Assembly (NCBI RefSeq): GCF_003260975.1
Contig: NZ_CP030041.1
Location: forward strand, 2,961,001-3,025,000
Direction: 5' to 3'
Source of the DNA: Echinicola strongylocentroti
Lineage (GTDB): Bacteria; Bacteroidota; Bacteroidia; Cytophagales; Cyclobacteriaceae
DNA length: 64,000 nucleotides
Shown: piece after piece, positions 11,319 to 62,841 of the stretch
Position numbering within the stretch: position 1 is the first letter of the stretch
Layout: every line of letters starts with the position of its first letter
Program-made: the position numbers and the translations under genes
The notes under the pieces: model-generated
What the model was told of the DNA's origin: nothing
The model's database searches: none
The model's input: only the letters and a program-made list of their open reading frames with translations

Positions 11319-11852
11319 CTACCTTTTCTTTGCTTCAAAGGTGGCGATGAGTTTCTCAAAATCCTCTTGGAGATTTTCGGCAGCAGCTAAAGGAGCTGTC
11401 GTCATGATCTTAAAATTTTGCCCTAACTTTGGGTACATATAAAAGTAACTTATCCACTCTTGCTCACCGCTAAGGGACTGAAATTTTGCCCAAAGAGCAG
11501 TAGCGCCATCTATTTTGGTTTTCCCCCGTTCTATCACCTTGAAATCCTCAACGTCTTCGGCCACATTGTACAACAGCTCAAAATTAAAATCCTCCTTAAA
11601 AGCCGGTTTGTCACCGAGAGACTCTACATAATCATCTCCTTGGGGCCGTTGCACATAAGTGAAGGACACATACGCACCGCTCGAATTAGGGGCGTACACC
11701 TCATAAGTATAGCCATCGTCCTTCACCTCCCAGCCACTGGGTTTGACATAGCTAAACTGAATACTAGGGTCGTTTATCACCACTCGTTCTTGGGCCGAAG
11801 CCACCAAAGGCAACACCCCAAGACAAAAAAGAATTATCGATCTGACTATCAT
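11319..11852 (-). CDS. Secreted protein of unknown function (PsbP/DUF1795-like)
   Basis: 177 residues with a clean signal peptide (MIVRSIILFCLGVLPLVASA). The mature part contains IQFSYVKPSGWEVKDDGYTY, then alternating beta strands and a final helix LQEDFEKLIATFE, a layout seen in PsbP/DcrB-like (DUF1795) domains that are often small periplasmic or lipoproteins. I cannot assign a function. It converges with the PLP enzyme gene, with 32 bp between the stops. Confidence 0.7.
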   Translation of the reverse strand: MIVRSIILFCLGVLPLVASAQERVVINDPSIQFSYVKPSGWEVKDDGYTYEVYAPNSSGAYVSFTYVQRPQGDDYVESLGDKPAFKEDFNFELLYNVAEDVEDFKVIERGKTKIDGATALWAKFQSLSGEQEWISYFYMYPKLGQNFKIMTTAPLAAAENLQEDFEKLIATFEAKKR

Positions 11853-12002
11853 AAAATTACTTGTCTAATTCTATAAAACAATAGCAATAAAAGTGCCTAG
11901 CTTGTTCATAAAAACAGGGCAAGATGAATTATCCCCATGTAAGTTAATGGCTTTCACCTCATTCTAGCGTCTCCAATAAGCTTCTTACCTCATCCCAAAT
12001 TG

Positions 12003-12059
12003 GCTCGGAATATGCATTAAGGCTGCTATTCATAGCCTAATGCATATTCCCGAGTTTAA
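12003..12059. repeat. Family A minimal hairpin (terminal inverted repeats only)
   Basis: A near-perfect inverted repeat: arm CTCGGAATATGCATTAAGGC, 9-base loop, arm AGCCTAATGCATATTCCCGA, then GTTTAA. The arms are the terminal repeats of the 194-bp family A element with the whole internal part missing. It lies between the secreted-protein gene and the end of the GMC gene and may act as a transcription terminator for the latter. Confidence 0.8.
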
Positions 12060-12121
12060 CTAAAATGGTACGGAGGCCCCTTATGGCACTTCAATGGAAA
12101 AAGGAACACCCCGCAACAAAT

Positions 12122-13822
12122 TTATCCTTGGTTTTTCAAGGCATGGTCCACCGCCCTAGCTGCAAAAACCATGTAGGTCAGCGAGGGGTTTTGGGTGCTG
12201 GTGGATGTCATGCAAGCGCCGTCTGTCACATAGACATTGGGACAAGTATGGAGTTGGTGGTGTTTGTTGAGCAGGGATGTCTTGGGATCATGCCCCATGC
12301 GGACGCCGCCCATTTCGTGGATGTCCAAGCCTGGCCGACGTTCATCATCCCAAGTGCGGATATTCTTAAATCCCGCTTCATCAAACATCTCCGATAACTG
12401 GTCGCGGTAATCCTGGATCATGTCAAGGTCGTTTTGGTCATAGTCCACATTGACCTTGAGCTGGGGCATTCCCCATTCGTCTTTTTGGTCCGTGTCGAGT
12501 GCGACGTAATTGCTTTCCTTCGGAATGGTTTCGCCCATCATGTGGGAGCCAACCCTCCATGGACCATAGGATGGATTCATCATGTTTTTAACTAAATCCG
12601 CTCCAGTTCCGCTATAATTAACATCCTTCGATCGGCTACCATGGATGCCTGCTGCATATCCTCTTAGAAACTTCGTTTCTTGTTTATCCACATTCCTGAA
12701 TCGCGGCATATAGCCGCTGGTGGGCCTTTTTCCTTCTGTGGTAAACTCTTTTAGACCGTCATATTCTCCTGATACACCACCGCGGTAATTGTGAAAAGCA
12801 ACGTATTTTCCCATCAAACCATTGTCATTGCCCAGCCCATTGGGAAAACGCTTCGACGTAGAATTCAACAGTATCAAATTGGTATTGAGTGCACTGGCGT
12901 TGACGAAAATAATCGGTGCGAAGTATTCTGTTACTTCTTTAGTATTCGCATCGATTACTCTCACTCCCGTGGCTTTTTGCTGTGCATCGTCATAAATAAT
13001 GGAATGCACCACGGCGTGATTTTTTAGGGTCAGGTTTCCGGTACGTTGCGCCCAGGGAAGTGATGCGGAGTTCGAACTGAAATACCCACCAAAAGGGCAT
13101 CCACGCTGGCAAATGGTGCGGTGCTGGCAGATTCCCCTACCTTGTTTTGCATAATATTCCGCGTTCCCTGTGATATGAGCACAGCGGCCACTGATGACAT
13201 TTCGTCCAGGGTATTTTTGCTCCACGACGGATTTAAAGTATTCTTCTGCAGCAGTCAACTCGATTCCAGGCAAAAACTCTCCATCCGGAAGCTGTGGAAT
13301 ACCATCATGAAAACCGGCCACGCCGACAAACTTTTCCACATAACTGTACCAAGGTGCCAAGTCCTTATACCTGATCGGCCAATCAACGGCAAAACCATCC
13401 CTTGCCGGCCCCTCGAAGTCGTGATCACTCCAGCGCTGGACCTGACGAGCCCACAACAGCGATTTTCCTCCCGTCTGATAGCCCCTGATCCAGTCAAAAG
13501 GCTTTTCTTGGATATAAGGATGCTCTTGATCTTTCACGAAAAAGTGCGCAGCATCCTCTCTGAATGCATAGCAGCGACTGACGACAGGATTTTCCCGCTG
13601 GATGTCTTCCGGCATTTGGCCGCGGTGCTCAAATTCCCACGGCATCATATTCGTAGTGGGGTAATCTTTATTGTGGATAACGCTCCTTCCCCGTTCCAGC
13701 ACCAAGGTTTTGACACCTTTGTCACATAGTTCTTTGGCAGCGAAGCCGCCACTCATGCCAGAGCCAATCACAATGGCTCCATAGGTATTTTCTTGTTTGC
13801 TTTTTATATTCAGATTAGCCAT
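12122..13822 (-). CDS. GMC-family FAD-dependent oxidoreductase
   Basis: 566 residues. FAD-binding motif GSGMSGGFAAKELCDKG at residues 21-37, then the LERGR end of the second strand, YQTGGKSLLWARQ, and the C-terminal GMC pattern HEMGGVRMG ... NVYVTDGACMTSTSTQNPSL with the active-site His region. It overlaps by 8 bp the gene for a gluconate-2-dehydrogenase-subunit-3-like protein, a standard pair in Bacteroidota. The large subunit oxidises a sugar or polyol, and the small subunit probably carries it across the membrane or stabilises it. The substrate is not evident from the sequence. Confidence 0.92.
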   Translation of the reverse strand: MANLNIKSKQENTYGAIVIGSGMSGGFAAKELCDKGVKTLVLERGRSVIHNKDYPTTNMMPWEFEHRGQMPEDIQRENPVVSRCYAFREDAAHFFVKDQEHPYIQEKPFDWIRGYQTGGKSLLWARQVQRWSDHDFEGPARDGFAVDWPIRYKDLAPWYSYVEKFVGVAGFHDGIPQLPDGEFLPGIELTAAEEYFKSVVEQKYPGRNVISGRCAHITGNAEYYAKQGRGICQHRTICQRGCPFGGYFSSNSASLPWAQRTGNLTLKNHAVVHSIIYDDAQQKATGVRVIDANTKEVTEYFAPIIFVNASALNTNLILLNSTSKRFPNGLGNDNGLMGKYVAFHNYRGGVSGEYDGLKEFTTEGKRPTSGYMPRFRNVDKQETKFLRGYAAGIHGSRSKDVNYSGTGADLVKNMMNPSYGPWRVGSHMMGETIPKESNYVALDTDQKDEWGMPQLKVNVDYDQNDLDMIQDYRDQLSEMFDEAGFKNIRTWDDERRPGLDIHEMGGVRMGHDPKTSLLNKHHQLHTCPNVYVTDGACMTSTSTQNPSLTYMVFAARAVDHALKNQG

Positions 13823-14378
13823 TGATGTTCACTTTTTCTCCTGGTACGATTTCTTTTTTTCCATTGAACTCCGGCCCGGGCACCAACTGGAAGGGCATGA
13901 GTTCGGTCATCACATATTCGGAATTCAAATAACCTTGGATGGTGTATTTTTTGGTGGTTTGCAAAAAATATTTCGTGGCCATTTCATCATCCGATGTTGG
14001 TTTGTCTTCCAAAATGGCATTGACAGTTTTTTCTGCTTCTACATTGTCCATTTTGGTAAACCGGGTACCGGACGTCTTTTTGGTATAATCATCAAATCCT
14101 TTCAGGCCACCGAGGAATTGTTTTTGTTCTTCAGCGCTCATGCAGTCATTGGCCATGACTAAGACAAAATTATGCACACCAAGCTCCGTTGCACCTTTGA
14201 GGTCTGTTTTAGGAATAATGGTATCCACCAGTTTTTGGAGCAATTGCTGCTGACTTTCAGTGATCTGCAGCTCATCATAAGCGGCCAGTACTTTTTCCTC
14301 ACTGAAATCACAGGAAGGAATCAGAGCCAGGCCACCTGCCGCCATGGCGAGTTGTTTTAAGGCTAATCGTCTGTTCAT
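13815..14378 (-). CDS. Gluconate 2-dehydrogenase subunit 3-like protein, predicted Tat lipoprotein
   Basis: 187 residues from ATG 14378; the longer frame to 14444 adds 22 residues ahead of the signal and is not preferred. The N-terminus MNRRLALKQLAMAAGG has twin arginines followed by LALIPSC, so Tat export with lipid attachment is likely. The body (LQKLVDTIIPKTDLKGATEL, FVLVMANDCM) matches the Gluconate_2-dh3 family. It partners the GMC oxidoreductase whose start codon it overlaps. The GMC protein itself shows no signal, so it may be exported by hitch-hiking on this subunit (known for related dehydrogenases, inferred here). Confidence 0.88.
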   Translation of the reverse strand: MNRRLALKQLAMAAGGLALIPSCDFSEEKVLAAYDELQITESQQQLLQKLVDTIIPKTDLKGATELGVHNFVLVMANDCMSAEEQKQFLGGLKGFDDYTKKTSGTRFTKMDNVEAEKTVNAILEDKPTSDDEMATKYFLQTTKKYTIQGYLNSEYVMTELMPFQLVPGPEFNGKKEIVPGEKVNING

Positions 14379-14972
14379 AGGTTTGTCATTAGGGGTATTT
14401 TGGGTTAATGAGAATTTTGTGAAAAGATAAAACGGTTTAGCCAATTTTTCAATGAATTAGTGATTTAATCCATCGGTAGCAAATTTTATTGATTTCAGCT
14501 TTTTGGCAATTTTAATAAGAACTTGGATTCCAATATATGTTTATCCGGAATGATACCATTAATCACAGGGAAATTAAATAGGTGCTCACAGAAAACATGG
14601 AAATATCAGAAAAGCCTTATCTCATTCTAGGTGTTCAGTGCGTTCCGTGAGAAATAAAACCTGCCGGCAATAAAGCGTATAATCAGATTCCAATATATCG
14701 AAAAAAGTAGAGCAATACAGCTAACTTATGGGAGAACCACATTAGGCACATAGAGTACAATAGGGTGAAGTTCGGTGATCATTTTTGGCTTTCACACCAT
14801 TTGATTAAACGTAGCGAGCATACTATAAATTGGATTCCTTATCACATCAACAAAATGGAGTTTTTAACTCAATTTTAGAGGTTCCGCAACACAGCTGGTC
14901 GAAACAACCTGGGAAGCAACTCGGTACCCGTTCGTCACTTTTGAGTCTTTAGCCTCACCACCTTCATAACCA
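14379..14972. other. Gene-free interval with degenerate repeat remnants
   Basis: No credible ORF. It contains a degenerate family E piece (GAAATAAAACCTGCCGGCAA near 14652) and a family D core at 14853-14918, with GGAGTTTTTAACTCAATTTT followed by GGTTCCGCAACACAGCTGG. Promoter elements for the minus-strand dehydrogenase pair must lie at its left end, but none is clear. Confidence 0.6.
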
Positions 14973-15008
14973 TAAAAAAGAGCCGGAAAGCAAATGGGCT
15001 TTCCGGCT
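14973..15008 (-). terminator. Rho-independent terminator of the phosphoesterase gene
   Basis: Inverted repeat AGCCGGAAAGC / GCTTTCCGGCT with a 6-base loop, followed on the minus strand by CTTTTTTATG. It sits 20 bp after the stop of the phosphoesterase gene. Confidence 0.9.
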
Positions 15009-15027
15009 ACAAACTAAATCTAAAAAA

Positions 15028-16590
15028 TTAGCGAATGTGATAAGTCTTCTTACCGTAATGTTTTTTGCCAAACATATCGGTTGCTTCCACTTCGATAGTG
15101 TGTACCCCTTTATCCTGTTTGGCATTTATTCCAGCACGCCACAGGTGGGTACTTTTTACAGGATTGGAAGGTCGTCTGCCATCCAGAAGCTCTTCGGTGG
15201 TGTCCCACTTATATACATCCATCATGTAGCTTGGGTCATATTCCTCCAGATAGGTCATTTTTTTCCAAGGGCCATCATCGATTCTGTAGCGGACTTCGTC
15301 ATCGGCAGTACCCATAAAGAAATTTACAAAGATACCAGCAGAGGTACGTTTGTCCTTTTCAAGCACTTTCGGTGCGAAAATGGCCATTTGATAGTCTTCA
15401 TTTTGGTCCACCACCTTGTACCTTACTTCATATTGATTTCCAGTGATGTCCAAGAATGCATAACCTTTTGGTGTTCCATCTCGCATGGTGGACTTGGGGA
15501 CCCCTTTCTCATTGAGCTCACCAGAGTACCAGTCTCCAGAGGTAGTGCCTACGTTATAGTGATGGTGTGGATTTTCTTGACCCCAGCCGTCCTTCTCAAA
15601 AAAGAAGTCTTGTCGCTGCAAGTGGGTATGGGCAGAAAGTGAAAGCGTATGTGGATAATCCTTCAGCAGATCAAACAGCTGTTGGCGTTCTTCATCGTTA
15701 AATGGATCACCACTTGGCTCACTCAATGGAATATGGAAAGCCAAAACAATTAAGTGGTCCTTTGGTACATACTTAAGATCATTTTTGACAAACTCCAATT
15801 GATCTGGACGAAAACCTCCCCAGTAGCCCTTACCATCCCGAGGGTCAGGATACATCACGTCGTCCAATACGATAAAGTGAACTTTGCCATGATTAAAGGC
15901 ATAATTGGCCGGGCCAAAATGCGCTTCAAACGTTTCGTCTGCTAGATGGTCTTCCTTGGCATCGAAGTTAAGGTCATGATTTCCCAATACATTGTACCAA
16001 GGGACGCCCACCTTGGCGGTAGCTGCAATATACGGATCAAAAAGATCCAAGTCATTACCAACCAAATCTCCCAATGACAACCCAAAGTCTATGTCCTCAA
16101 TGCCTTCTACTTCTGAGACTACGCCATTGTCAAAGTGGTTGATCTCCTCAATGGTGTAAGGCTGTGGATCACCAAAGATCAGCGCGGTAAAATTCGTCTT
16201 GTCCGAAATGGGCAACAGGCCGAAGTCTACTTTCTTTGGAAGCTTGCCAGTGGGTGCTACTCCCTCAAAATCCATTTCAGGAGAACCTTCAGGCTTGTGA
16301 ATGTAGAAATACTGAGGAAGGTTTTGCTCATTTACGGGAGCTTGGTAGCCGGCCGGTTTGATGACAAAGATGATCTGATCTTGGCCTATTGGCAGTTCGT
16401 ACCGGCCTTTTTTGTCCGTCAGGACGACATCCACCCCGTTCGAAACGGCTACTTGTGCTATTCCATCTTCTTTTCGGTCTTTTTTGCCGTTGTTGTTAAG
16501 GTCTTCATAGACCGTTCCTTTGGCAGTTTCTTGTGCAAAAGCTGACCAAGAGGCCGCCACAATTAAGCTTGATAAAAGCAGTTTTTTCAT
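15028..16590 (-). CDS. Secreted calcineurin-like phosphoesterase with N-terminal SdrD-B-like domain
   Basis: 520 residues with signal peptide (cleavage probably after SWSAFA). Residues about 20-110 form a small beta domain (GTVYEDLNNNGKKDRKEDG, then a GRYELPI strand) like the SdrD-B/CNA-B modules that decorate surface proteins. The metallophosphatase domain follows: GDPQPY, GDLVGNDLD, GNHD, AFHIPL and SAHTHLQ supply the two-metal ligands. The C-terminal ~130 residues are a further beta domain. It is probably a periplasmic or cell-surface phosphodiesterase. Standing alone between repeat-filled intervals, it has its own terminator. Confidence 0.88.
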   Translation of the reverse strand: MKKLLLSSLIVAASWSAFAQETAKGTVYEDLNNNGKKDRKEDGIAQVAVSNGVDVVLTDKKGRYELPIGQDQIIFVIKPAGYQAPVNEQNLPQYFYIHKPEGSPEMDFEGVAPTGKLPKKVDFGLLPISDKTNFTALIFGDPQPYTIEEINHFDNGVVSEVEGIEDIDFGLSLGDLVGNDLDLFDPYIAATAKVGVPWYNVLGNHDLNFDAKEDHLADETFEAHFGPANYAFNHGKVHFIVLDDVMYPDPRDGKGYWGGFRPDQLEFVKNDLKYVPKDHLIVLAFHIPLSEPSGDPFNDEERQQLFDLLKDYPHTLSLSAHTHLQRQDFFFEKDGWGQENPHHHYNVGTTSGDWYSGELNEKGVPKSTMRDGTPKGYAFLDITGNQYEVRYKVVDQNEDYQMAIFAPKVLEKDKRTSAGIFVNFFMGTADDEVRYRIDDGPWKKMTYLEEYDPSYMMDVYKWDTTEELLDGRRPSNPVKSTHLWRAGINAKQDKGVHTIEVEATDMFGKKHYGKKTYHIR

Positions 16591-16883
16591 TTTGCTATAT
16601 TAATTTTAGTAGTGTTTACTCATTTTATGACATCATCATTATAACTAAAAACCAATGCAACAATAGATGAGAATCTCTTCTTTTCGCCGCACTGTCACTT
16701 CACTTATGTGGCTCAAAGTGGGCACTTATTCTTAACAATGATAACAATGACTAGTTACTAGATAAGTATCATTAAAGGGGTAGAACTACCGAAAATTCTG
16801 ATTATAGAATTGTTATTAATTAATTAAATTGATGATGTTATATTAATATGGAAAATTTTCGTGTAGGTATATAGCTATCATCA

Positions 16884-17135
16884 GTGCCGCTGGCACGTTA
16901 ATCCAGTTCGTGCATTAGAAACTGTAGCATCCTGTCCCAGCCTACGGGCCAGAATGTCTGAAAGAACAAGGACATCTGTGAACATGGCGTTCGATAAAGC
17001 CTTCGCGCCTGGCTGCTCAAGTATGGCGGATGGCTTAGATTAAAGAATTTTGTGAGTTAGCAACTGGCCATGCTGTCTAATCCGCCTTTGGCGGAGGATC
17101 ATATAGAAGGTGAAGGTGACCGCCTGTACCTTAAA
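16884..17135. repeat. Family B dispersed repeat, copy 2
   Basis: Second, diverged copy of the 6726-6974 element, in the same orientation. It begins with GTGCCGCTGGCAC (16884-16896), contains CCTTCGCGCCTGGCTG, and ends with AATCCGCCTTTGGCGGAGGA. The rest of the 16591-17258 interval is A+T-rich and shows no gene. Confidence 0.8.
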
Positions 17136-17258
17136 CTGTAACGCACGTGAATATAAACGACAGATATAAATGCTATTGTCTGAAAAGGCTGCTACGGATA
17201 GTGGGATTTTACCGACCAAAGCTTAGTTTTGTAAGCTCAATGCTTACCCAAACAGCAG

Positions 17259-17711
17259 ATGCAAAATACACCGCCAAATACCGACCAAGCTATGCCCCGC
17301 TATACCATGCCGATGCGGGGAGTTATCCTCATTTCGGGGATGGTGACCGTGGCCTGGGGAGCATTTTTTAGATGGATGGGAGACCCGCTACTATCCTGGT
17401 TGGCGATGACACCTCAACAAACAATCCCTGCAGACGCCACCATTTATGGCACCTTTGTGTTGATCATTGGCTTTTTGTTATTTTTAAGTGCTTTTTATCC
17501 CATTTCGTGGATATACCTTACCATGATAGGTATCGCGGGAAAGCTCATCTCTGCCATTTGGTTTGTGGTTTCCTATGTGGATATCCTCGGATGGAATAAA
17601 AGAACGATATTCCATTTGGGCTTTAACGAGATTTTTTGGCTGATTCCACTCACCTATGTATTATGGAAAGCACTACAGGTAAAGGATTTTCTAAAAACTT
17701 ACGAGGAGTAA
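17259..17711 (+). CDS. Four-helix membrane protein of unknown function
   Basis: 150 residues. Four hydrophobic helices: GVILISGMVTVAWGAFF, ATIYGTFVLIIGFLLFLSAF, IYLTMIGIAGKLISAIWFVV and FWLIPLTYVLWKAL. The first ~18 residues are polar, and a start at one of the later methionines (MPRYTMPMRG) is possible. I recognise no family with confidence. Solitary, it precedes the TM2/M48 cluster by 210 bp. Confidence 0.7.
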   Translation: MQNTPPNTDQAMPRYTMPMRGVILISGMVTVAWGAFFRWMGDPLLSWLAMTPQQTIPADATIYGTFVLIIGFLLFLSAFYPISWIYLTMIGIAGKLISAIWFVVSYVDILGWNKRTIFHLGFNEIFWLIPLTYVLWKALQVKDFLKTYEE

Positions 17712-17921
17712 ATTAAATAACTTCATGGCGCAATAAAAGCGATTTCCCTGTGTCATTCATTTACGATTTTTTACCTTTTGAGTTTTGTGTTATATTAGCA
17801 AATTCTTATCAAACCTAAATTCATTTTTTTATAGGGCTTCGAAATTTCAGAGGCCATACACTAAATCAATTGACCCATCTCATACTCTTTGAATTTGATC
17901 TATCACTTATAACACACACAA

Positions 17922-18305
17922 ATGGACATTTCTAAAGTAGATTTATTTCTGATGATGAATGCTAAATATTTTGAAAGCCATCACCTACCATTTATCCGTG
18001 AACATCTAATTCGACTAGATGATTCTGCATGGCAGAGCATTCAAATCTTGCAGTTTTACGACCCCAGCAGCACACAAGTTGTGTCACTGGTAGGTGGCCA
18101 AATGGGCATTGACCGCTTTATGGTAGGCGACGTAGGTTTAGGAGTACTAAAATTACTCACTTGTGGCGGAATGGGTATTTGGGCGATCATAGATTGGTTT
18201 ATGATCCAAGGTATCGTTCGCGAAAAGAACGGGATAAAACTCAAAGAAGCATTGGCCTCTATGTCAAAGTCACTTCCAAACCCTGACACCAATGAACAGG
18301 AATAA
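17922..18305 (+). CDS. TM2 domain membrane protein
   Basis: 127 residues. The TM2 signature is at residues 60-105: GGQMGIDRFMVGDVGLGVLK followed by LLTCGGMGIWAIIDWFMI, two helices joined by a tight turn. The N-terminal ~50 residues (FLMMNAKYFESHHLPFIRE) form a soluble helix pair seen in Bacteroidota TM2 proteins. It is the first gene of a four-gene plus-strand cluster, and its last 14 bases overlap the DUF2752 gene. Confidence 0.87.
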   Translation: MDISKVDLFLMMNAKYFESHHLPFIREHLIRLDDSAWQSIQILQFYDPSSTQVVSLVGGQMGIDRFMVGDVGLGVLKLLTCGGMGIWAIIDWFMIQGIVREKNGIKLKEALASMSKSLPNPDTNEQE

Positions 18306-19939: not shown

Positions 19940-19972
19940 GAATGAGAATCCCACCACAAAACAGTAAGTGGA

Positions 19973-20166: not shown

Positions 20167-20266
20167 GTAATTATTGAAGTGGTTATTAATTTAAGCTGCT
20201 GATAAACTAATCGGGGATAACAATACTGATAATCAGTATATTATGAAAAACCCAATTCAGAAATAC

Positions 20267-20318: not shown

Positions 20319-20336
20319 GCAGGATGCAATACCTTT

Positions 20337-53794: not shown

Positions 53795-53797
53795 CTG

Positions 53798-53978: not shown

Positions 53979-54051
<73 letters not shown>

Positions 54052-54202
54052 TTGTGATGAAAATCGTGACGTTGACCGTTTTATCTCCGTCATTGTGAGT
54101 GCAAATGTACGCAGCTTTTTCAAAACCACAAATATCACACTCAATATTTTTTAAGATTTCTCACATTATGGTGCTACCTTACTGATTTTCAAGGAGATTT
54201 TT

Positions 54203-56812
54203 TTAGTCCAGTTTTTTCTTGATTTCATTGAGTTTTAGCAAGGCTTCCACGGGGGAAATGGTGTTGATGTCTATGCTGTCCAATAATTCCTGGGCTTCTT
54301 TGAACTTCGGATCGATCTCAAAAAGACTCAGCTGAAAGTTGTTTTTAGGCACATCTTTCATCTTTTCTTTCTGCTGGTTCATGTCTTTGTCCTTTTCCAA
54401 ATGCCCCATGATTTCAGAAGCACGAAGCACCACCGGATTAGGCATACCGGCCATCTGTGCCACGTGGATCCCAAAGCTGTGCTCACTGCCACCTTCTTTT
54501 AGTTTTCGCATAAAGATCACCTTGTCGGCCACCTCCTTTACAGAAACGTTGAAGTTTTTCACCTTTGGAAAATCTTCTGCCAGCTGGTTAAGCTCATGAT
54601 AGTGCGTCGCAAAGAGCGTTTTGGCATTGAACTTAGGGTGATTGTGCAGGAACTCCACGATGGACCAGGCAATGGATATCCCATCATAGGTGGAAGTGCC
54701 ACGGCCGATTTCGTCCATAAGCACCAAGCTGCGATCAGAGAGGTTGTTCAGAATACTGGCTGTTTCGGTCATTTCCACCATAAAGGTAGATTCTCCCTTG
54801 GATAGATTATCCGATGCGCCCACTCGCGTAAACACTTTATCGATAATGCCAATTCGCGCATACGAAGCAGGGACAAAACTCCCCATCTGGGCCATCAGCA
54901 CAATCAATGCAGTCTGGCGAAGCAATGCCGACTTACCCGCCATATTGGGGCCGGTGATGATGATGATCTGCTGGGTGCTATTGTCCAGGTAGATGTCATT
55001 GGGCACATAGTCTTCCCCGATGGGAAGTTGCTTTTCGATCACTGGATGACGACCATCTTTGATTTCCAGGCTTTCTGTATCGGCGACTTTTGGACGACAG
55101 TAGCCATTTTGGGCTGCAATGAACGCAAAGGAAAGCAAACAATCCACAGTGGCCAATATCCGGGCATTCTCCTGAATTTGGATGACATATTCACCGGCAC
55201 TTTGCACCAAGAGATTAAAGTACTTGTGCTCCAAGACCACCAACTTTTCCTCCGCATGGAGGATTTTATCTTCGTATTCTTTGAGTTCTTCGGTGATGTA
55301 TCTTTCCGCATTGACCAAAGTCTGCTTTCTGATCCATTCGGAAGGCACTTTATCTTTATGGGTATTGGAGACTTCAAGGTAATAGCCGAAGACTTTGTTA
55401 TAGGCGATCTTTAGGGAGCTGATGCCGGTACGTTGGATTTCCCTTTGCTGTATCTGCACGAGGTAGTCCTTACCGGAAGTGGACAGTTTGCGGTACTCGT
55501 CCAGTTCTGGGTCCACGCCGTCACAGATGATATTGCCCTGATGGGTGAGCATGGGGGCATCTTCCTTGAGCTCCTTTTCTATTTTTTCTAGTAGAAATTC
55601 GCAAGCATTGATCTGGTCACCTAGCTTTTTGAGGGAAGGATTCTTTTGCTTCTTGAGCAATTCCTTGATAGGCATGGTGCTTTTCAGGGCCTTTTTTAGC
55701 TGGTTCATCTCACGGGGATTGATCCGTGCCACGGCCACTTTGGAGATCAGCCTTTCCAAGTCACCAATATGTTTCAGGTGATTGAGGATTTCTTCGGCCA
55801 GGTCCTGCTCTGCATGGAAATGGTCCACGACTTTCAGCCGCTCTTCGATGGGGGCTTTTTCCTTCAGGGGCAGTACCATCCATTTTTTCATCATCCGTGA
55901 GCCCATCGGAGTCACCGTCTGGTCAAGGATTTGGATCAGGGGCACTCCACCGTCCTGCTGTGGATAAACCAGCTCTAGGTTTCGAATGGTGAATTTGTCC
56001 AGCCAGACAAATTTCTCCTCGGCAATCCGTGAAATCGCTGCAATGTGCTTGACTTCCTTGTGCTCGGTTTCTTCCAGGTAATAGAGAATGGCTCCTGCCG
56101 CGATGATGCCCTGCTCTAGGTTTTCGATGCCAAAGCCCTTGAGATTGGCTGTTTGGAAGTGATCAGTAAGCCTTTCATAGGTGTAGTCAAACTGGAATAC
56201 CCAGTCTTCGCAGTGGAAGGTGGTGAAATCATCCTTTAACAATTCTGCTGCTTTGATTTTATCCGCCTTGGAATAAATGATCTCAGATGGGCTAAAGCTC
56301 TGGAGGAGTTTTTCGATATAGGAAGCATTGCCCTCGGCAGACATAAATTCTCCTGTGGATAAGTCCAAGAATGCGATCCCTAAGCTCTGTTTGCCAAAAT
56401 AGATCGAGGCCAGGTAATTGTTGCGGCGCTTGTCGAGGACGTTGTCGTTAAAGGACAGTCCCGGGGTGACCAGCTCGGTGACGCCTCTTTTGACGATGCC
56501 CTTGACTTCTTTAGGATCTTCCAGTTGGTCACAAATGGCCACACGATTGCCGGCGCGCACCAGCTTGGGCAGGTAGCTGTCCAGCGAATGGTGTGGAAAA
56601 CCCGCCAACTCGATATGACTGGCGGCACCATTGGCACGCTTGGTGAGGACGATGTCCAAAACCTTGCTGGCTTTGACAGCATCTTCCCCAAATGTCTCGT
56701 AGAAATCCCCCACCCTGAACAGCAGCAAAGCGCCTGGGTGCTTGGCTTTGATGCTGTTGTACTGCTTCATCAGGGGCGTTTCCTTCGCTGCTTTTGCCTT
56801 TGCTTTGGCCAT
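54203..56812 (-). CDS. mutS: DNA mismatch repair protein MutS
   Basis: 869 residues. N-terminal mismatch-binding domain with [11 protein letters not shown] (the F-x-E motif), connector and clamp regions ([20 protein letters not shown]), ATPase with Walker [16 protein letters not shown], Walker [17 protein letters not shown] and ATHYHEL. The C-terminal tail is of normal length. Recognises base-base mismatches and small loops. A DnaA-box 9-mer is built into the conserved DLSTGE codons (56355-56362) and another near 55960. Divergent from the SpoU-type methyltransferase, with 89 bp between. Confidence 0.97.
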
Positions 56813-56840
56813 CTTTTACCGGATTTTAAATCTTTCGTGT

Positions 56841-56848
56841 TAATTTTG
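56841..56848 (+). promoter_or_regulatory. Possible -7 box of the RNA methyltransferase gene
   Basis: TAATTTTG fits the Bacteroidota sigma-A -7 consensus TAnnTTTG, 53 bp before the ATG. No TTG -33 box at the proper distance, so weak. Confidence 0.3.
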
Positions 56849-56901
56849 GTAATTATTCAAAGGCTGAAATTAATCGATTCAAAAAGGTAAACAAAAACCG
56901 A

Positions 56902-57450
56902 ATGAAAAAATTAACCATGGATGAGCTTAACCGCTTGTCCGTCGATGAGTTCAAATCATCCGATAAAATCCCTCTGGTCATCGCCCTCGACAACATCCGT
57001 AGCCTGAACAATGTAGGATCGGCTTTTCGGACTTCGGATGCTTTTAGGATTCAGAAGATCTACCTCTGCGGCATCACCGGCACCCCGCCACATCGTGATA
57101 TTCAGAAAACGGCCCTTGGCGCCACCGAATCCGTGGAATGGGAATATGCAACGAGTACATTGGAAGCCATTGCCAGGTTAAAAGAGCAAAATTTTACAAT
57201 CTGTTCACTGGAGCAAGTGGAAAACAGCACAAAGCTAAATGAGTTCATCCCTGATAAGGACGAAAGGTACGCATTAGTATTTGGCAATGAGGTATTTGGG
57301 GTAGAAGAAGAAGTCATCTTGGCCAGTGACCATGTCTTGGAAATCCCCCAAATGGGCACCAAGCATTCCCTAAATATCTCGGTGAGCATGGGTATTGCCA
57401 TTTGGGATTTTGTATCAAAAGTGGGTGGATTAACCCGGATTATGCGTTAG
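56902..57450 (+). CDS. SpoU/TrmH-family RNA 2'-O-methyltransferase, 3' end supplied by a repeat
   Basis: 182 residues. SPOUT-fold motifs: ALDNIRSLNNVGSAFRTSDA (motif 1), LVFGNEVFGVEEEVI (motif 2) and HSLNISVSMGIAIWDF (motif 3, knot). It methylates a ribose in tRNA or rRNA; which one cannot be told from sequence. The last residues (LTRIMR) and the stop codon TAG (57448-57450) are encoded by the left terminal repeat of a family A element, so the natural C-terminus was probably replaced when the element arrived. Confidence 0.87.
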   Translation: MKKLTMDELNRLSVDEFKSSDKIPLVIALDNIRSLNNVGSAFRTSDAFRIQKIYLCGITGTPPHRDIQKTALGATESVEWEYATSTLEAIARLKEQNFTICSLEQVENSTKLNEFIPDKDERYALVFGNEVFGVEEEVILASDHVLEIPQMGTKHSLNISVSMGIAIWDFVSKVGGLTRIMR

Positions 57451-57604
57451 GAATCGTAGTGAGAGCTGAAATTGCAAGAAAATCAGTTAGTTTGGAGGCA
57501 TTAGCGTAGCACCGCTACGGTAATGCCGAAAACTAAAGTGAAACGGCTGATTTTTAAGCAGTTTAAGGTCGCAACAGATAGGCTAATGCATATTCCGGGT
57601 TTAA
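57430..57604 (+). repeat. Family A snap-back element, copy 3 (internal 18-bp deletion)
   Basis: Starts TTAACCCGGATTATGCGTTA and ends CATATTCCGGGTTTAA. Compared with copies 1 and 2 it lacks the run ACCTGTGCGCCGTGGCGT before the right end. It overlaps the end of the RNA methyltransferase gene by 21 bp. Confidence 0.9.
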
Positions 57605-57712
57605 TACCAAAGGAATAATCGTCCAGCTACTGCAAAACGAATTGGTAACCTTCGGAAAATCAGCTAAGACCTTTGCACTAAAATTCTCCTATTAATTTCC
57701 AAGAAAACTTTA

Positions 57713-58645
57713 TTATTTGAACTTCACCACTTTACCATGTGCTTTAGAGGTCATATCTTCAGGAATGGCTTCAGTGACTTCATTATAGAGCAATTCTACC
57801 AGACGCTTTTTCAAAAAACTCCTGGTCAGCACAATGCTCACTTCTCTCGTAGGCTCCTCCCCACCAAAAGACCTTATGCGTGATTTTTCTTCCTCACTAA
57901 GGTCAAAAGTAGCCAATTCCGGAAGCAGGGTAACTCCTTGATAGCGATTGACCATATTTTTTAAGCCTTCCAACGAGCCACTTTCATAATGAAAGTTCAT
58001 TCGCTGAAACTTTGACTGATCGCAGATACTTAATACTTGATCCCGGAAACAATGTCCCTGCTGAAGTACCCAAAAATCGTCTGCCATAAGATCTTTCACC
58101 TCAATATTTTGCTTTGACAATAGCCGATGGTTTTTGGAAAGATAGGCATAAAACCGTTCATAAAACATGGGTTTTTCCACAATTCCCTGTTCTTCTAATG
58201 GCGTCACCACGATGCCCATATCCAGCTCATCATTTCGCAGGCGCTTGATGATTTCTTCGGTGATCAACTCTTCCACCTGTAGCTGCACATTGGGATACTT
58301 CTCTAGAAAATTGCGGATAAAAAGATGCAAAAGGTAGGGGGCCAAGGTCGGAATAATGCCCAGTTTGATCACTCCACTAATATTTCCTTTGGCTTGTGAA
58401 ATCATCTCATAAATGCCCTTGCTCTCAGAGACCACCCTTTTGGCTTGCTCGATCAGCTGTTGGCCGATCTCTGTCGGAATCACCGGCATCTTCGAACGGT
58501 CAAAAATTACCACGTCCAACTCCCTTTCCAACTTGTGTATTTGGGCACTTAGGGTGGGTTGGGTGACAAAACAAGCTTCGGCTGCATGTCCAAAATGGCG
58601 GTGCTTATCCACAGCCAGCACATATTCTAATTGCTGAATAGTCAT
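57713..58645 (-). CDS. oxyR: OxyR, LysR-type peroxide sensor
   Basis: 310 residues. LysR helix-turn-helix (FGHAAEACFVTQPTLSAQIH) and effector domain. The redox pair is present at C199 (QQGHCFRDQ) and C208 (LSICDQS), the same numbers as in E. coli OxyR, where they form the peroxide-induced disulphide; GHCFRD is the diagnostic motif. It probably activates catalase and peroxiredoxin genes elsewhere. A TATATTTG box lies 35 bp before the ATG. No target gene is adjacent; the upstream side is a tandem repeat array. Confidence 0.93.
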   Translation of the reverse strand: MTIQQLEYVLAVDKHRHFGHAAEACFVTQPTLSAQIHKLERELDVVIFDRSKMPVIPTEIGQQLIEQAKRVVSESKGIYEMISQAKGNISGVIKLGIIPTLAPYLLHLFIRNFLEKYPNVQLQVEELITEEIIKRLRNDELDMGIVVTPLEEQGIVEKPMFYERFYAYLSKNHRLLSKQNIEVKDLMADDFWVLQQGHCFRDQVLSICDQSKFQRMNFHYESGSLEGLKNMVNRYQGVTLLPELATFDLSEEEKSRIRSFGGEEPTREVSIVLTRSFLKKRLVELLYNEVTEAIPEDMTSKAHGKVVKFK

Positions 58646-58679
58646 TTGCTAAATTGTTTTTAGCGATCAAAAACTTATG

Positions 58680-58687
58680 CAAATATA
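58680..58687 (-). promoter_or_regulatory. Possible -7 box of oxyR
   Basis: TATATTTG on the minus strand, matching the Bacteroidota TAnnTTTG consensus, 35 bp ahead of the start codon. A -33 TTG is not evident. Confidence 0.4.
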
Positions 58688-58790
58688 AAGCTTTCTTTTT
58701 ATTTAGACTCATTTTAAATAAAAAACACCTAGGAAATCGCTTTTATACCAGTTTATGCTATCAAGCTCAATCATTCGTCGTTATAAAAAC

Positions 58791-59770
58791 CATAACTCAC
58801 TCTGTGCCCTTCGTGAACCTTGGTGACCTCTATGGTTAAAAAGACTAACCACTAAGTGCACAAAGCAACGCACTGAGGTCACAAAGACTCGCCAAACCAA
58901 AAAATTGATTATCCGTCTATATTCAAGTACTAACTGAATTACCCATTATTCCAAAAATCATAACTCACTCTGTGCCCTTCGTGAACCTTGGTGACCTCTG
59001 TGGTTAAAAAGACTAACCACTAAGTGCACAAAGCAACGCACTGAGGTCACAAAGACTCGCCAAACCAAAAAATTGATTATCCGTCTATATTCAAGTACTA
59101 ACTGAATTACCCATTATTCCAAAAATCATAACTCACTCTGCGCCCTTCGTGAACCTTGGTGACCTCTGTGGTTAAAACAACTAACCACTAAGTCCACAAA
59201 GCCATGCACTGAGGTCTCTAAGATTCCCTATACCAAAAATTCCTTATCCGTCTATATTCAAGTACTAACTGAATTACCCATTATTCCAAAAATCATAATT
59301 CACTCTGCGCCCTTCGTGAACCTTGGTGACCTCTGTGGTTAAAACAACTAACCACTAAGTCCACAAAGCAACGCACTGAGGTCTCTAAGATTACTTAAAC
59401 CAAAAATTCCTTATCCGTCTATATTCAAGTACTAACTGAATTACCCATTATTCCAAAAATCATAACTCACTCTGCGACCTTTGTGAACCTTGGTGACCTC
59501 TGTGGTTAAAAAGACTAACCACTAAGTACACTAAGCAAGCACTGAGGTCACAAAGACTCGCCAAACCAAAAAATTGATTATCCGTCTATATTAAAGTACT
59601 AACTGAATTACCCATTATCCCAAAAATCATAACTCACTCTGTGCCCTTTGTGAACCTTGGTGACCTTTGTGGTTAAAACAACTAACCACTAAGTGCACAA
59701 AGTCACGCACTGAGGTCTCTAAGATTCCCTATACCAAAAATTCCTTATCCATTAATATTCAAGGTTCTAA
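58791..59770. repeat. Tandem array, six units of 167-168 bp
   Basis: Units begin CATAACTCAC at 58791, 58959, 59127, 59294 (CATAATTCAC), 59461 and 59628. Each unit has an imperfect ~40-nt inverted repeat: TTCGTGAACCTTGGTGACCT then CTGTGGTTA, a 7-base centre, and TAACCACTAAGTGCACAAAG continuing to GAGGTCACAAAG. A unique tail follows: TTATCCGTCTATATTCAAGT, ACTAACTGAATTACCCATTA. Units 1-3 and 5 share more with each other than with 4 and 6. Not CRISPR: no short repeat/spacer alternation. Fills the space between oxyR and the decarboxylase. Confidence 0.93.
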
Positions 59771-59805
59771 ACATGTTATCCACATAGTCTTAAGAAGAAT
59801 ACTTT

Positions 59806-61236
59806 TTAAATGGTAAACACCCTTTTCACAGTTTCCAGTTCGGATTTTAGGCAATCGCAAGCCATTAGGACATGCTCCCTTTTTACGTCCGTCTGGCCGA
59901 TGACCCATCGAATCACGAATGCTCCGTTTAATATAGTCGAAGTGAAAAAGACTTTTCCACTGGCATTTACTCCATCCATCCAAGCCTTGTTAAAGGCATT
60001 TTGTTGGGGTGTGGATAGTGACTTTTCCACAAATCGGAAACAAATGACATTCAAAACACTAGCTGTTTCCACTATTACATTTTCTTCATTTTCAATCCAT
60101 TTTTTTGCCAATTTCGTATGTCTAATATGCCCTCTGAGCTTTTCACGAATTCCTGCCAAACCATAGGACCTGATCACCCACCAAAGCTTCAAAGCGCGAA
60201 ACCTACGTCCCAACTGAATCCCCCAATCACGGTAGTTATGCACATGCTCATCTTGATCAGTTTTAAGGTATTCGGTGGTCATGGAAAATGTGTGGACAAG
60301 ATCATCAGCATTTTTTACAAAAAGCACCGAGCAATCAAAGTTTGTAAACATCCATTTGTGCGGATTGAAGACATAGCTGTCGGCCAACTCATGTCCCTCA
60401 ATCATCCAGCGAAATTCCGGAAGTAGGAGGGCAGTGCCGGCATAGGCTGCGTCGATATGATGCCACATTTCAAATCGAGCAGCTAATTTTCCGATCTCTC
60501 CAATAGGGTCAATGGCCGCCGAACTGGTCGTTCCCAAAGCCGAAACTACGCACAATGGTGTAAATCCATTTTGTATATCCGCTTCTATAGCGCTTTCCAA
60601 AGCCTCCGGGATCATGGCGAAACTGGTGTCCACGGGGATTTTTACCAGATTTTGATGCCCCAGTCCCGCTATTCGCATTGCCTTATCCACCGACGAATGG
60701 GCGTGCTCAGAGCTATACACCCTGAATTTCTCCTGGCCACAGAAGCCCTTTTCATTAACAGAAAATTTGCTTGCTCGTTCCCTAGCGGCCAAAATAGCAC
60801 ATAGCGTAGCCGTAGAAGCAGTATCCTGGATGACACCTTTCCACGTGGAATTCAGTCCTTTGGCATCTCGCAGCCAATTGACCACTCTTTCTTCCAGTTC
60901 GGTAGCAGCCGGAGACGTTAGCCAGGACATACACTGGGCACCCAATGTGGACATGAGCATCTCGGCCATGATAGATGGCGCAGAAGTATTTGCTGGAAAG
61001 TAACCGAAAAACATCGGATGTTGCCAGTGCGTCATTCCAGGCAGTATCACTTCTTCAAAATCCGCAAAAATCTCATCAAACGTTGCGGGATCTTCCGGTG
61101 CCTTGTCGGGAAACTTATCATAAATCTCTCCCGGCTTAATATCAGGAGTTACGGGATAGTTCTCTTTTTGCTCCAAATAATCAGCCATCCAGTCGACCAA
61201 CTGATGGGCATGCTTTCTAAAGTCGCGGTTATCCAT
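59806..61236 (-). CDS. PLP-dependent aromatic L-amino-acid decarboxylase
   Basis: 476 residues of the group II decarboxylase family. Motifs: AHQLVDWMADYLE (start), MTHWQHPMFFGYFPANTSAP, CVVSALGTTSSAAIDPI, HIDAAYAGTALLLPEFR, and the PLP lysine in NPHKWMFTNFDCS. Residues near the active site (HPMFFGYFPA) are as in tryptophan/DOPA decarboxylases, so an aromatic amino acid substrate is likely but not proven. A DnaA-type box lies just after its stop (59776). Monocistronic. Confidence 0.92.
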   Translation of the reverse strand: MDNRDFRKHAHQLVDWMADYLEQKENYPVTPDIKPGEIYDKFPDKAPEDPATFDEIFADFEEVILPGMTHWQHPMFFGYFPANTSAPSIMAEMLMSTLGAQCMSWLTSPAATELEERVVNWLRDAKGLNSTWKGVIQDTASTATLCAILAARERASKFSVNEKGFCGQEKFRVYSSEHAHSSVDKAMRIAGLGHQNLVKIPVDTSFAMIPEALESAIEADIQNGFTPLCVVSALGTTSSAAIDPIGEIGKLAARFEMWHHIDAAYAGTALLLPEFRWMIEGHELADSYVFNPHKWMFTNFDCSVLFVKNADDLVHTFSMTTEYLKTDQDEHVHNYRDWGIQLGRRFRALKLWWVIRSYGLAGIREKLRGHIRHTKLAKKWIENEENVIVETASVLNVICFRFVEKSLSTPQQNAFNKAWMDGVNASGKVFFTSTILNGAFVIRWVIGQTDVKREHVLMACDCLKSELETVKRVFTI

Positions 61237-61336
61237 TTAAGGTCGATTATTCGTTTTCATTATCAATTATTGTAATCGCTAGTCATTTACTAAAATCCTA
61301 TTGTGTTTCTCTTTGCTCCAAAATAACCCCACCTAA

Positions 61337-61425
61337 CCTCCCCGCCGTGGCGGGGAGGATCTCAAGTCTCACGTCTCATATCTCACTACTCATGTCTCAA
61401 GACTCACATCTCACTACTAACCCCA
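61337..61425. repeat. GC-rich hairpin and family F degenerate tract
   Basis: Perfect hairpin CCTCCCCGCC - GT - GGCGGGGAGG (61337-61358) followed by a run of TCTCAAGTCTCACGTCTCAT-type units to the end of the SDR gene. It may terminate the SDR gene; a related tract occurs at 5570. Confidence 0.7.
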
Positions 61426-62184
61426 CTAATGCACATAAGAACCAGCATTAATATCGATGGTGCTACCGGTCGCATGGTCTGCAAGGCCAGAAACCAGCAA
61501 ACATACCATCGGTGCAATATCTTTTGGCTCAGTAAGTCGCTCCAGTGCAATGTCATGGAGGGCGAAGTCCTCGCCGTATTGATCCATAAAATCCTGAGCC
61601 ATGTCCGTTCGGACAAATCCCGGGGCAATGATAAATGCCCGAATGCCTTCTTTGCCATAATACCGCGCAACAGACCTCGTAAATCCTACCAAAGCGGACT
61701 TAGAGGAAGCATAGGCCAAATAATCGGGCGTATCTCCTTGAAAAGCTGCACGCGAACTGATATTGACCACTCTTCCGCTTTTATGGAGGCGGGCGTGTTG
61801 GACAAATTCCTTCGTAATGACTGCCAAGGCATTGACATTGACCGTCATCGTGTGGAGCCAGGTGGCTGTCCACTGATCGGTAGCCGCCTCATCCGATACA
61901 GAAACTGCAATGCCAGCATTATTGATTACTGCATCGATTTCCCCATATTTATCCACCAACCGTGGAATCCAGCCCTTCACCTGCTCCAAATCACCAAGAT
62001 CGCACGGGACGATATGGCTGGTAGTAGGTAATTGCTGCTGCAACTCCTTGGCCGCGGCTTGGTTTTTATGGTAATGGATCAACACTTCTGCGCCCGAGGC
62101 AGAAAGTTGCTCCGCAATAGCGCAGCCTATTCCACGGGAAGCGCCAGTGACGAGAATGCGTTGGTTTTCTAAAGAAATATTCAT
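61426..62184 (-). CDS. SDR-family NAD(P)-dependent oxidoreductase (FabG-like)
   Basis: 252 residues. Cofactor motif VTGASRGIG (12-20), NNAG (near 89), catalytic Ser in VVNISSRAAF and Tyr-x3-Lys in YLAYASSKSAL, ending with GSTIDINAGSYVH. The sequence is closest in style to 3-oxoacyl-ACP reductases, but many SDRs look alike and no other fatty acid genes are nearby. The GGCT-like gene upstream on the same strand is 27 bp away, so the two may be co-transcribed. Confidence 0.9.
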   Translation of the reverse strand: MNISLENQRILVTGASRGIGCAIAEQLSASGAEVLIHYHKNQAAAKELQQQLPTTSHIVPCDLGDLEQVKGWIPRLVDKYGEIDAVINNAGIAVSVSDEAATDQWTATWLHTMTVNVNALAVITKEFVQHARLHKSGRVVNISSRAAFQGDTPDYLAYASSKSALVGFTRSVARYYGKEGIRAFIIAPGFVRTDMAQDFMDQYGEDFALHDIALERLTEPKDIAPMVCLLVSGLADHATGSTIDINAGSYVH

Positions 62185-62211
62185 AGTAGGATCGAAAATT
62201 TTGTTGTTCGG

Positions 62212-62841
62212 TTACTTACTAGAGCTAATCAATTTTTTTAGATCAGCTTGGACGGGGGTGTTCCTAATGCCCTCTTTCATTGCCAAATAGTCAAAAATTT
62301 CTTCATCAGTCAATCCATGCACCTCTTTTATTCCCCTGATTATGGTTCCGAGGTAGGATTCATGCGGCTCCACATATGGCTGAAACAATTCCTTGGCGGT
62401 AAAAGTAAAGATGGGTTCACCATCCTCCTTGCCGAGGTACAGTAACTGGTCATACCAACGCTCTTTTCCAAGTAACATCTTTCCCTGAGCAATCACCTTA
62501 TCCAAATCAATTTCTGGTCGTTGCGGAAGCCCATTTTCCTGCTTGACCACGTCATAAAACTGCTCTTCAGTAATCCGGTACATGCAGGCCAAGGTCCTTT
62601 CGGAACCACGGCCATCACTGTGGATAAATGCTACGCCACCGCCATTCCATATTTTCGCTTGCTGCGCAAAATATAGTCCATAAGGCATTTCAAGTCCCTT
62701 TTTAGCGGTTGGAAGCGACTTATCCACACAGCCTTCGTAGGTTTTCGTGGCGCCCAAGGGTTTACCACCCCTGATATAACAAAGGAACCTTTCTTCCAAA
62801 AGGTTAGAACCGTAACTGGCATACCAAAGGTATTTGGTCAT
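62212..62841 (-). CDS. Gamma-glutamylcyclotransferase-fold (GGCT-like) protein
   Basis: 209 residues. The N-terminal WYASYGSNLLEERFLCYIRG carries the YGSNL signature of the GGCT fold. The expected catalytic glutamate is not certain; GGGVAFIHSDGRGSERTLAC and MYRITEEQFYDVVKQENG follow the fold. Function may be cyclotransferase on gamma-glutamyl compounds or something else. Lies 27 bp upstream of the SDR gene. Confidence 0.75.
   Translation of the reverse strand: MTKYLWYASYGSNLLEERFLCYIRGGKPLGATKTYEGCVDKSLPTAKKGLEMPYGLYFAQQAKIWNGGGVAFIHSDGRGSERTLACMYRITEEQFYDVVKQENGLPQRPEIDLDKVIAQGKMLLGKERWYDQLLYLGKEDGEPIFTFTAKELFQPYVEPHESYLGTIIRGIKEVHGLTDEEIFDYLAMKEGIRNTPVQADLKKLISSSK

What the first reader, a model, noticed from the sequence alone, without database searches (positions are those of the whole stretch)
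11450..62727. Massive over-representation of the DnaA box TTATCCACA, spread through genes and spacers
Reading the window by eye I count 46 copies of TTATCCAC/GTGGATAA; 38 are the full 9-mer TTATCCACA. With about 45% G+C the 9-mer should appear about 0.6 times in 64 kb on both strands. Positions of the octamers: 11450, 12684, 13673, 15651, 18591, 19379, 19488, 19838, 21695, 24719, 25090, 25115, 26388, 27013, 29250, 29281, 29848, 29869, 30110, 30229, 33227, 35427, 35440, 37523, 38226, 38277, 38381, 38484, 40643, 42701, 46215, 46667, 46678, 47773, 48969, 50384, 50573, 51491, 55960, 56355, 58605, 59776, 60683, 61949, 62620, 62720. Copies lie in all three coding frames (VDN, LST, YPQ, IHK), so protein needs do not explain them. 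Strands are nearly equal (25 to 21), which argues against a Chi- or KOPS-like polar signal. None is in the first 11.4 kb or within the repeat arrays. Possible roles: titration of DnaA, a nucleoid-protein or methylase site, or a DNA-uptake-type signal.
Basis: partly seen in the sequence, partly recalled or inferred. Interest (0 to 1): 0.87.

Follow-up and report, generated by a model that had tools for sequence, protein, structure and literature searches.

The report
Origin-side DnaA-box reservoir, 50 kb
Beside the replication origin of an Echinicola chromosome, a 50-kb stretch of ordinary genes is packed with perfect binding sites for the replication initiator DnaA, kept by selection at the DNA level, and it most likely acts as a sponge that helps time and limit the start of DNA replication.

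Summary
In detail: 38 TTATCCACA, 0.7 expected; 45 of 46 octamer positions exact. It is local: 38 of 126 genomic copies lie in 50 of 6252 kb. Skew, gene orientation, parS and a conserved weak-box cluster place oriC at about 3,036,104, so the domain lies 12-62 kb from oriC, on the parS side. In 11 genomes of the genus that side of parS holds 250 boxes in 590 kb, the other 17 in 627 kb; one genome (G002) lacks the domain. 34 of 38 boxes are inside genes, in all five possible frames; synonymous shuffling gives 3.8. Boxes are kept far above matched 9-mers, e.g. 23 of 35 against 4.3 expected at 79% identity. Domain genes permit boxes three to four times more often than genes elsewhere. oriC has nine one-mismatch boxes, none perfect. 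Best reading: an origin-side DnaA titration zone, copied first after initiation. E. coli shows a weaker, broader version (PMC12371093). DnaA binding is inferred, not shown. Methylase and uptake-signal readings are not supported.

The parts
12684..62728 (.). Box-rich domain (genome 2973684-3023728), 38 TTATCCACA in ordinary chromosomal genes; octamers from 11450
   Evidence: oriC (genome about 3036104-3036500) and parS (3031413-3031590) lie outside the window to the right
12684..12692 (+). TTATCCACA
13672..13680 (-). TTATCCACA
15650..15658 (-). TTATCCACA
18590..18598 (-). TTATCCACA
19378..19386 (-). TTATCCACA
19477..19485 (-). TTATCCACA
19837..19845 (-). TTATCCACA
21694..21702 (-). TTATCCACA
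24719..24727 (+). TTATCCACA, outside the CDS set used
25089..25097 (-). TTATCCACA
27013..27021 (+). TTATCCACA
29250..29258 (+). TTATCCACA
29847..29855 (-). TTATCCACA
29869..29877 (+). TTATCCACA
30110..30118 (+). TTATCCACA
30228..30236 (-). TTATCCACA
33227..33235 (+). TTATCCACA
35426..35434 (-). TTATCCACA, outside the CDS set used; inverted pair with the next
35440..35448 (+). TTATCCACA, outside the CDS set used; inverted pair with the previous
37522..37530 (-). TTATCCACA
38277..38285 (+). TTATCCACA
38380..38388 (-). TTATCCACA
38484..38492 (+). TTATCCACA
40642..40650 (-). TTATCCACA
42700..42708 (-). TTATCCACA
46215..46223 (+). TTATCCACA
46666..46674 (-). TTATCCACA
47772..47780 (-). TTATCCACA (AAA/Lon-like ORF, radA-like)
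   Evidence: the name radA is recalled
48968..48976 (-). TTATCCACA (AAA/Lon-like ORF, radA-like)
   Evidence: the name radA is recalled
50383..50391 (-). TTATCCACA (DNA polymerase A gene)
50573..50581 (+). TTATCCACA (DNA polymerase A gene)
51491..51499 (+). TTATCCACA (DNA polymerase A gene)
55959..55967 (-). TTATCCACA (mutS)
56354..56362 (-). TTATCCACA (mutS)
58605..58613 (+). TTATCCACA (lysR-type gene)
59776..59784 (+). TTATCCACA, outside the CDS set used
62619..62627 (-). TTATCCACA, inner edge of the domain
62720..62728 (+). TTATCCACA, inner edge of the domain

Best explanation
The domain is an origin-side reservoir of high-affinity DnaA sites. Perfect boxes 12-62 kb from oriC hold DnaA away from the nine weak, one-mismatch boxes of oriC until the reservoir is full; oriC then fires; the fork crosses the domain within about the first 2% of its replichore and doubles 38 of the 126 perfect boxes (30%) at once, so free DnaA falls and a second start is prevented. 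Shown: the local excess, its place beside the inferred oriC, conservation of the boxes as DNA, only one-mismatch boxes at that oriC. Inferred: that this region is oriC, that DnaA binds the boxes with higher affinity than oriC, and that the effect is titration.
For: Locality: 38 of 126 copies in 50 of 6252 kb. Origin: skew switch; gene strand bias 39+/67- in samples left, 68+/28- right; five parS-like sites within 2 mismatches just upstream of mnmG; a cluster of one-mismatch boxes 4.5-4.7 kb from parS with shared spacing in 11 of 11 genomes of the genus, a perfect box in 1 of 11; a cluster of 5 or more relaxed boxes in 450 bp in the same interval in 66 of 71 full-length named loci, against 1 of 284 background windows. 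Domain at -5 to -55 kb of parS, near zero from 0 to +35 kb. Conservation: boxes kept 25/37, 25/36, 23/35, 9/23 and 10/23 against 11.3, 8.0, 4.3, 1.6 and 1.5 expected in G006, G003, G004, G007, G008 (all ten relatives in the full report). Position: kept 94 of 156 inside relatives' domains (23.4 expected), 18 of 62 outside (7.7 expected) (9 of 10 relatives). Codon null 3.8 against 34. Permitted box positions 9.4 per 10 kb CDS against 2.4 and 3.1, filled 182/294 against 8/93 and 5/94. DnaA carries GRDHSTVIHA (that this is the box-binding signature is recalled). No Hda-like second Bac_DnaA match: besides DnaA, PF00308 finds four weak, equal-scoring matches, and the one read is an ORF beside a transposase-like ORF (the names IstB and transposase are recalled). 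[quoted passage not shown]
Against: No binding data. The enriched near-variants are not simply TTWTNCACA: ATATCCACA, TTTTCCACA and TTATCAACA rise, TTATACACA does not (13 against 13.2). G002, same genus, has only 5 boxes on that side. In G006, G007 and G008, orthologs of domain genes lying outside the domain, 65-125 kb from parS, carry 9 boxes each, as dense as inside (6.7-10.1 per 10 kb); of the own box positions there 9 of 9, 3 of 13 and 3 of 13 are kept. Some family members have a genome-wide excess without a domain at parS (G022). Titration does not require one-sidedness. Having no perfect box at oriC is not special to this genus: 34 of 71 named loci have none. Skew minima of the fetched slices scatter from -12.7 to +7.6 kb of parS and do not pin oriC by themselves.
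Confidence: 0.6

Rival explanations
1. The boxes nucleate a DnaA (or DnaA plus ParA/ParB) nucleoprotein domain that organises or segregates the origin region; titration is a side effect.
For: In the 10 genomes that have it, the domain is on the parS side of oriC, starts 4-15 kb from parS, and the other side is nearly empty.
Against: parS, mnmG and oriC stay together in the genus, so nearness to parS and to oriC cannot be told apart. Random spacing and no strand bias show no ordered array.
Confidence: 0.2
2. Another DNA-binding protein, with a specificity like DnaA's, reads the boxes (an origin-domain protein analogous to Noc or MatP; these names are recalled).
For: The variant profile departs from TTWTNCACA; an A[CG] context upstream is preferred (108 of 245 in domains, but also 32 of 103 boxes outside).
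Against: The inferred oriC of the same genomes is built of one-mismatch versions of the same 9-mer. No candidate gene was sought.
Confidence: 0.13
3. Codon or peptide usage, or a repeat family, makes the words without selection on DNA.
For: 34 of 38 are in genes.
Against: Synonymous shuffle mean 3.8, maximum 9 in 1000; flanks differ; kept beyond matched 9-mers.
Confidence: 0.02
4. The boxes are many small DnaA-dependent regulatory sites of the genes there.
For: DnaA also acts as a transcription factor (PMC12371093 passages); a polA-like gene is in the domain.
Against: 34 of 38 lie inside coding sequences.
Confidence: 0.03

Closest known systems
Origin-proximal DnaA-box enrichment of E. coli and Salmonella (Olivi et al. 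2025, PMC12371093; abstract, section 6 and passages seen)
   Same: More DnaA boxes near oriC than elsewhere, beyond the boxes of oriC itself; proposed to serve titration.
datA / DARS loci of E. coli (recalled; also in PMC12371093 passages)
   Same: DnaA-box clusters away from oriC that lower or raise active DnaA.
   Different: Those are noncoding clusters of a few boxes (five at datA, nine at DARS1 and DARS2 together, PMC12371093) with IHF/Fis sites; this is 50 kb of mostly coding DNA with scattered boxes. Two small noncoding clusters elsewhere in this genome look more like them.
Initiator titration model with sites near the origin (Berger and ten Wolde 2022, PMC9640692; passages seen)
   Different: A model; its authors say that such placing is not consistent with experiments in E. 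coli.

Membership tests
Origin-proximal DnaA titration region | DnaA boxes enriched beside oriC over background | tested here: met
   (oriC inferred, not shown by experiment)
Origin-proximal DnaA titration region | Boxes maintained by selection as DNA | tested here: met
Origin-proximal DnaA titration region | Bound by DnaA with higher affinity than oriC sites | not testable with these tools
   only inferred from perfect against one-mismatch boxes
Origin-proximal DnaA titration region | Conserved in relatives | tested here: met
   10 of 11 genomes of the genus, two of them seen only to -33 and -36 kb; G002 lacks it. Outside the genus uneven within 51 kb of parS: G120 17 boxes, G057 9, G022 6
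datA/DARS | Short noncoding cluster with IHF/Fis sites | tested here: not met
   34 of 38 boxes coding, 50 kb; IHF/Fis sites were not sought
DNA uptake sequence or methylase motif | Over-represented genome-wide | tested here: not met
   126 against 84 for the reversed word, excess mostly local
KOPS/Chi-type polar motif | Strand bias along the replichore | tested here: not met
   16 + and 22 - in the domain
Mobile element or prophage with its own boxes | Element genes | tested here: not met
   Pfam scan of 40 of the 71 window ORFs listed: mutS, polA and metabolic families, no phage or integrase family; two tRNAs

The most novel reading that the evidence does not exclude
Echinicola runs replication timing largely by counting: a 50-kb initiator sink written into protein-coding DNA beside oriC, with only weak boxes at oriC and no Hda, so that the sink is the main brake on reinitiation; selection for the boxes is strong enough to have changed the amino-acid sequences of the resident proteins, and most genes lying outside the zone lack the boxes that their orthologs carry inside it.
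Probability: 0.4. Interest if true: 0.92.

Novelty: new variant of a known kind. Interest (0 to 1): 0.82.

Why it matters
Whether bacteria time replication by titrating DnaA was proposed decades ago and is still debated (PMC12371093, abstract), and modelling says that titration copes with fast growth only if the sites lie near the origin (PMC9640692, passages). This genus appears to have built that arrangement in a compact form that can be removed with mostly silent mutations, so it offers a direct test. It also shows a DNA-level constraint that overlays dozens of ordinary genes and probably bends their protein sequences.

Tried and rejected
1) Terminus reading: the box cluster at 57-64 kb first looked like oriC and the domain like a terminus domain (note 1); skew and gene orientation reversed this. 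2) Tight box groups at the inner edge of the domain, 6-8 kb from parS, were next taken for oriC; no oriC-like sequence was seen in the own genome there. 3) Then the 3-box noncoding cluster at 3,334,976; the weak-box cluster beside mnmG, found in most family loci, replaced it. Notes 3 to 6 carry readings 2 and 3. 4) mutS as anchor was misleading because it moves between genomes (that script stopped with an error at G005, so G005 and G002 were not covered there). 5) The 16S rRNA search in the own genome found nothing and was not used. 6) G022: box count high but no domain at parS; G097: 13 boxes in 12.5 kb whose place relative to oriC is unknown. 7) Rows dropped: G002 left out (10 of 11 genus genomes used), of the distance profile, and (9 of 10 relatives used); G007 and G008 slices end at about -33 and -36 kb from parS. 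In pooled counts orthologous boxes are counted once per genome, so they are not independent. 8) Literature: searches found 0 papers; some searches gave capped listings (15 of 4064, 15 of 41, 12 of 20, 11 of 11, 10 of 24; the term datA also matched 'data') in which I saw no title or abstract start on such a domain in Bacteroidota. 'Not seen in print' rests on these seven searches of an open-licence library; only PMC12371093 and PMC9640692 were opened, in parts.

Full report
Observation. TTATCCACA occurs 38 times in the window, with 0.70 expected from dinucleotide shuffles. The word tops the 9-mers of the stretch. Flanks are unrelated apart from a weak preference at -1 and -2, so it is not a repeat family.

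It is local. The window is 2961001-3025000 of a single 6,252,144-bp contig; the genome holds 126 copies, the reversed control word 84. 38 of the 126 lie between 2973684 and 3023728. The 40 ORFs scanned with Pfam (of 71 listed in the window) are ordinary chromosomal genes: GMC oxidoreductase, metallophosphatase, peptidases, desaturase, polA, mutS and a radA-like ORF; there are two tRNAs.

Where it is. In sampled 20-kb stretches GC skew is mostly negative from about 0.06 to 3.025 Mb and mostly positive from 3.025 Mb to the end, with exceptions (for example weakly positive at 2.75 Mb, negative at 3.105-3.145 and 3.185-3.225 Mb). ORFs of 200 aa or more in sampled stretches run 39+/67- in 0.3-2.77 Mb and 68+/28- in 3.4-6.0 Mb. 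Five parS-like sites (two exact, one with 1 and two with 2 mismatches) at 3031413-3031590 stand directly upstream of mnmG; all 11 genomes of the genus have at least one exact parS. At 3036104, 4.6 kb beyond, lies an AT-rich region with nine one-mismatch DnaA boxes and no perfect one; it is intergenic except that its first box overlaps the end of the upstream ORF. Box offsets are shared across the genus, and 66 of 71 full-length named family loci have 5 or more relaxed boxes in 450 bp in the same interval, against 1 of 284 background windows. I take this as oriC. Skew minima of the 11 genus slices lie between -12.7 and +7.6 kb of parS. The domain lies 12.4-62.4 kb to the left of oriC.

The genus. 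On the domain side of parS (up to 60 kb), 11 genomes hold 38, 26, 31, 34, 18, 24, 12, 17, 24, 21 and 5 boxes (250 in 590 kb); on the other side 0, 0, 2, 2, 6, 0, 1, 1, 0, 0 and 5 (17 in 627 kb) (order G000, G001, G003-G010, G002). In the pooled domain side the word is the most frequent 9-mer. In the 10 genomes without G002, density is 4.6 to 7 per 10 kb from -5 to -45 kb, 2.5 to 3.9 from -45 to -55 kb, and at most 0.4 from 0 to +35 kb. G002 is the exception, and also the only one of 11 with a perfect box in oriC; one case proves nothing.

Selection on DNA. Own boxes aligned to relatives are identical in 25 of 37 (G006), 25 of 36 (G003), 23 of 35 (G004), 9 of 23 (G007), 10 of 23 (G008), 5 of 21 (G009), 4 of 12 (G001), 6 of 12 (G010), 5 of 19 (G005) and 2 of 14 (G002); phase-matched 9-mers predict 11.3, 8.0, 4.3, 1.6, 1.5, 1.6, 0.8, 0.9, 1.3 and 1.0. 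Inside relatives' domains 94 of 156 are kept (23.4 expected), outside 18 of 62 (7.7 expected) (without G002). The outside figure is above chance too, half of it from G006, where a block with mutS lies 88-100 kb from parS and kept 9 of 9.

Genes or place. Orthologs of own-domain genes that lie outside the relative's domain have few boxes in six relatives (G001, G002, G003, G004: 0; G005 and G009: 2 each, 1.4 and 1.6 per 10 kb) but as many as inside in three (G006, G007, G008: 9 each, 6.7-10.1 per 10 kb). In G001, G008, G009 and G010, domain ORFs without an ortholog in the fetched own slice carry 4.2-5.7 boxes per 10 kb; in G002 to G007 such ORFs carry 0-0.9. So place matters, but it is not a clean rule, and the direction of the moves was not determined.

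Coding sequence. 34 of 38 boxes are inside the CDS set I used, in all five stop-free frames; shuffling synonymous codons within genes gives 3.8 on average, at most 9 in 1000. Those CDS have 42 positions where the protein would permit a box; 34 are filled. With automatic ORFs in 10 genomes: 9.4 permitted positions per 10 kb in the domain, 182 of 294 filled; 2.4 on the other side, 8 of 93 filled; 3.1 in 20 other own samples, 5 of 94 filled. Filled sites alone (5.8 per 10 kb) exceed all permitted sites elsewhere, so amino-acid choice has probably been bent as well; that last step is inference.

Specificity. Enriched near-variants are ATATCCACA (56 against 6.2 scaled from the other side), TTTTCCACA (84/19.3), TTATCAACA (36/3.5), TTATCCACG (19/0.9), TTGTCCACA (18/4.4), TTAACCACA (17/3.5), and more weakly TTATCCACC (28/14.1) and TTATGCACA (16/7.9); TTATACACA is not (13/13.2), TTATTCACA hardly (16/10.5). 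This partly departs from the E. coli consensus. The A[CG] context upstream (108 of 245; 32 of 103 boxes outside) is strongest in two coding frames and remains unexplained.

Mechanism. The simplest account is titration: strong sites 12-62 kb from oriC, weak sites at oriC. 30% of the perfect boxes are doubled when the left fork has copied about 2% of its arm (arithmetic). [quoted passage not shown] PMC12371093 (abstract, section 6, passages) reports a broader, weaker enrichment around oriC in E. coli. As a yardstick, E. coli K-12 has 4 perfect boxes in 100 kb around oriC. The only strong Bac_DnaA match in the genome is DnaA; four weak ones score alike and the one read looks like a transposon ATPase, so no Hda-like protein was seen with that family. 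DnaA binding, affinity and any effect on timing are untested.

Breadth. Genome-wide counts in 145 genomes of the order vary: some are far above the reversed word (G233 225 against 78, G122 144 against 57, G163 76 against 16), many are not. Sequence around parS was examined in 14 genomes; for G000, G003, G022 and G097 the first 100 genome positions were listed. In the family G120 has 17 boxes within 51 kb of parS, 16 on one side; G057 has 9, four at its oriC; G022 has 6 and no cluster.

Noticed in passing
L254 / genome 3334976-3335081; also G002, G003, G005, G007, G008, G009, G010: Recurring noncoding AT-rich cluster of 3-4 perfect boxes (two direct boxes 20 bp apart and an inverted one about 77 bp away; G002 and G003 have a fourth) on the far side of oriC from the domain; a datA/DARS-like candidate.
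   Followed up: partly
L016 / genome 57414-64368; G003 3956527-3968115: Nine perfect boxes in 7 kb near the GC-skew maximum; three of them with spacing 83 and 110 bp recur near the antipode of parS in G003. In the own genome they lie upstream of an ORF that reads like a DtxR-type regulator (recalled, not searched).
   Followed up: partly
G097:C1:618780-631341 (L255): 13 perfect boxes in 12.5 kb in another genus of the family; position relative to its oriC unknown.
   Followed up: partly
window 30828-31553, 46945-47701, 52241-53466, 58785-59763: Tandem arrays with units of 167-402 bp between ORFs; those at 30828 and 52241 share a GTTGTTCCGAC core. They hold no perfect box.
   Followed up: no
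window 41243-45587: Vsr-like, DUF2357/PDDEXK and MrcB_N/AAA ORFs: a restriction island resembling McrBC inside the domain (the comparison is recalled); it contains one perfect box.
   Followed up: no
genome 731935, 777506, 1343263, 2933690: Four equal-scoring ATPase matches; the one read (L042) lies beside a transposase-like ORF, as in an IS21-like element (name recalled).
   Followed up: no
genome 2847496-2849237: Six same-strand boxes, three of the gaps 266-268 bp, probably a repetitive gene.
   Followed up: no
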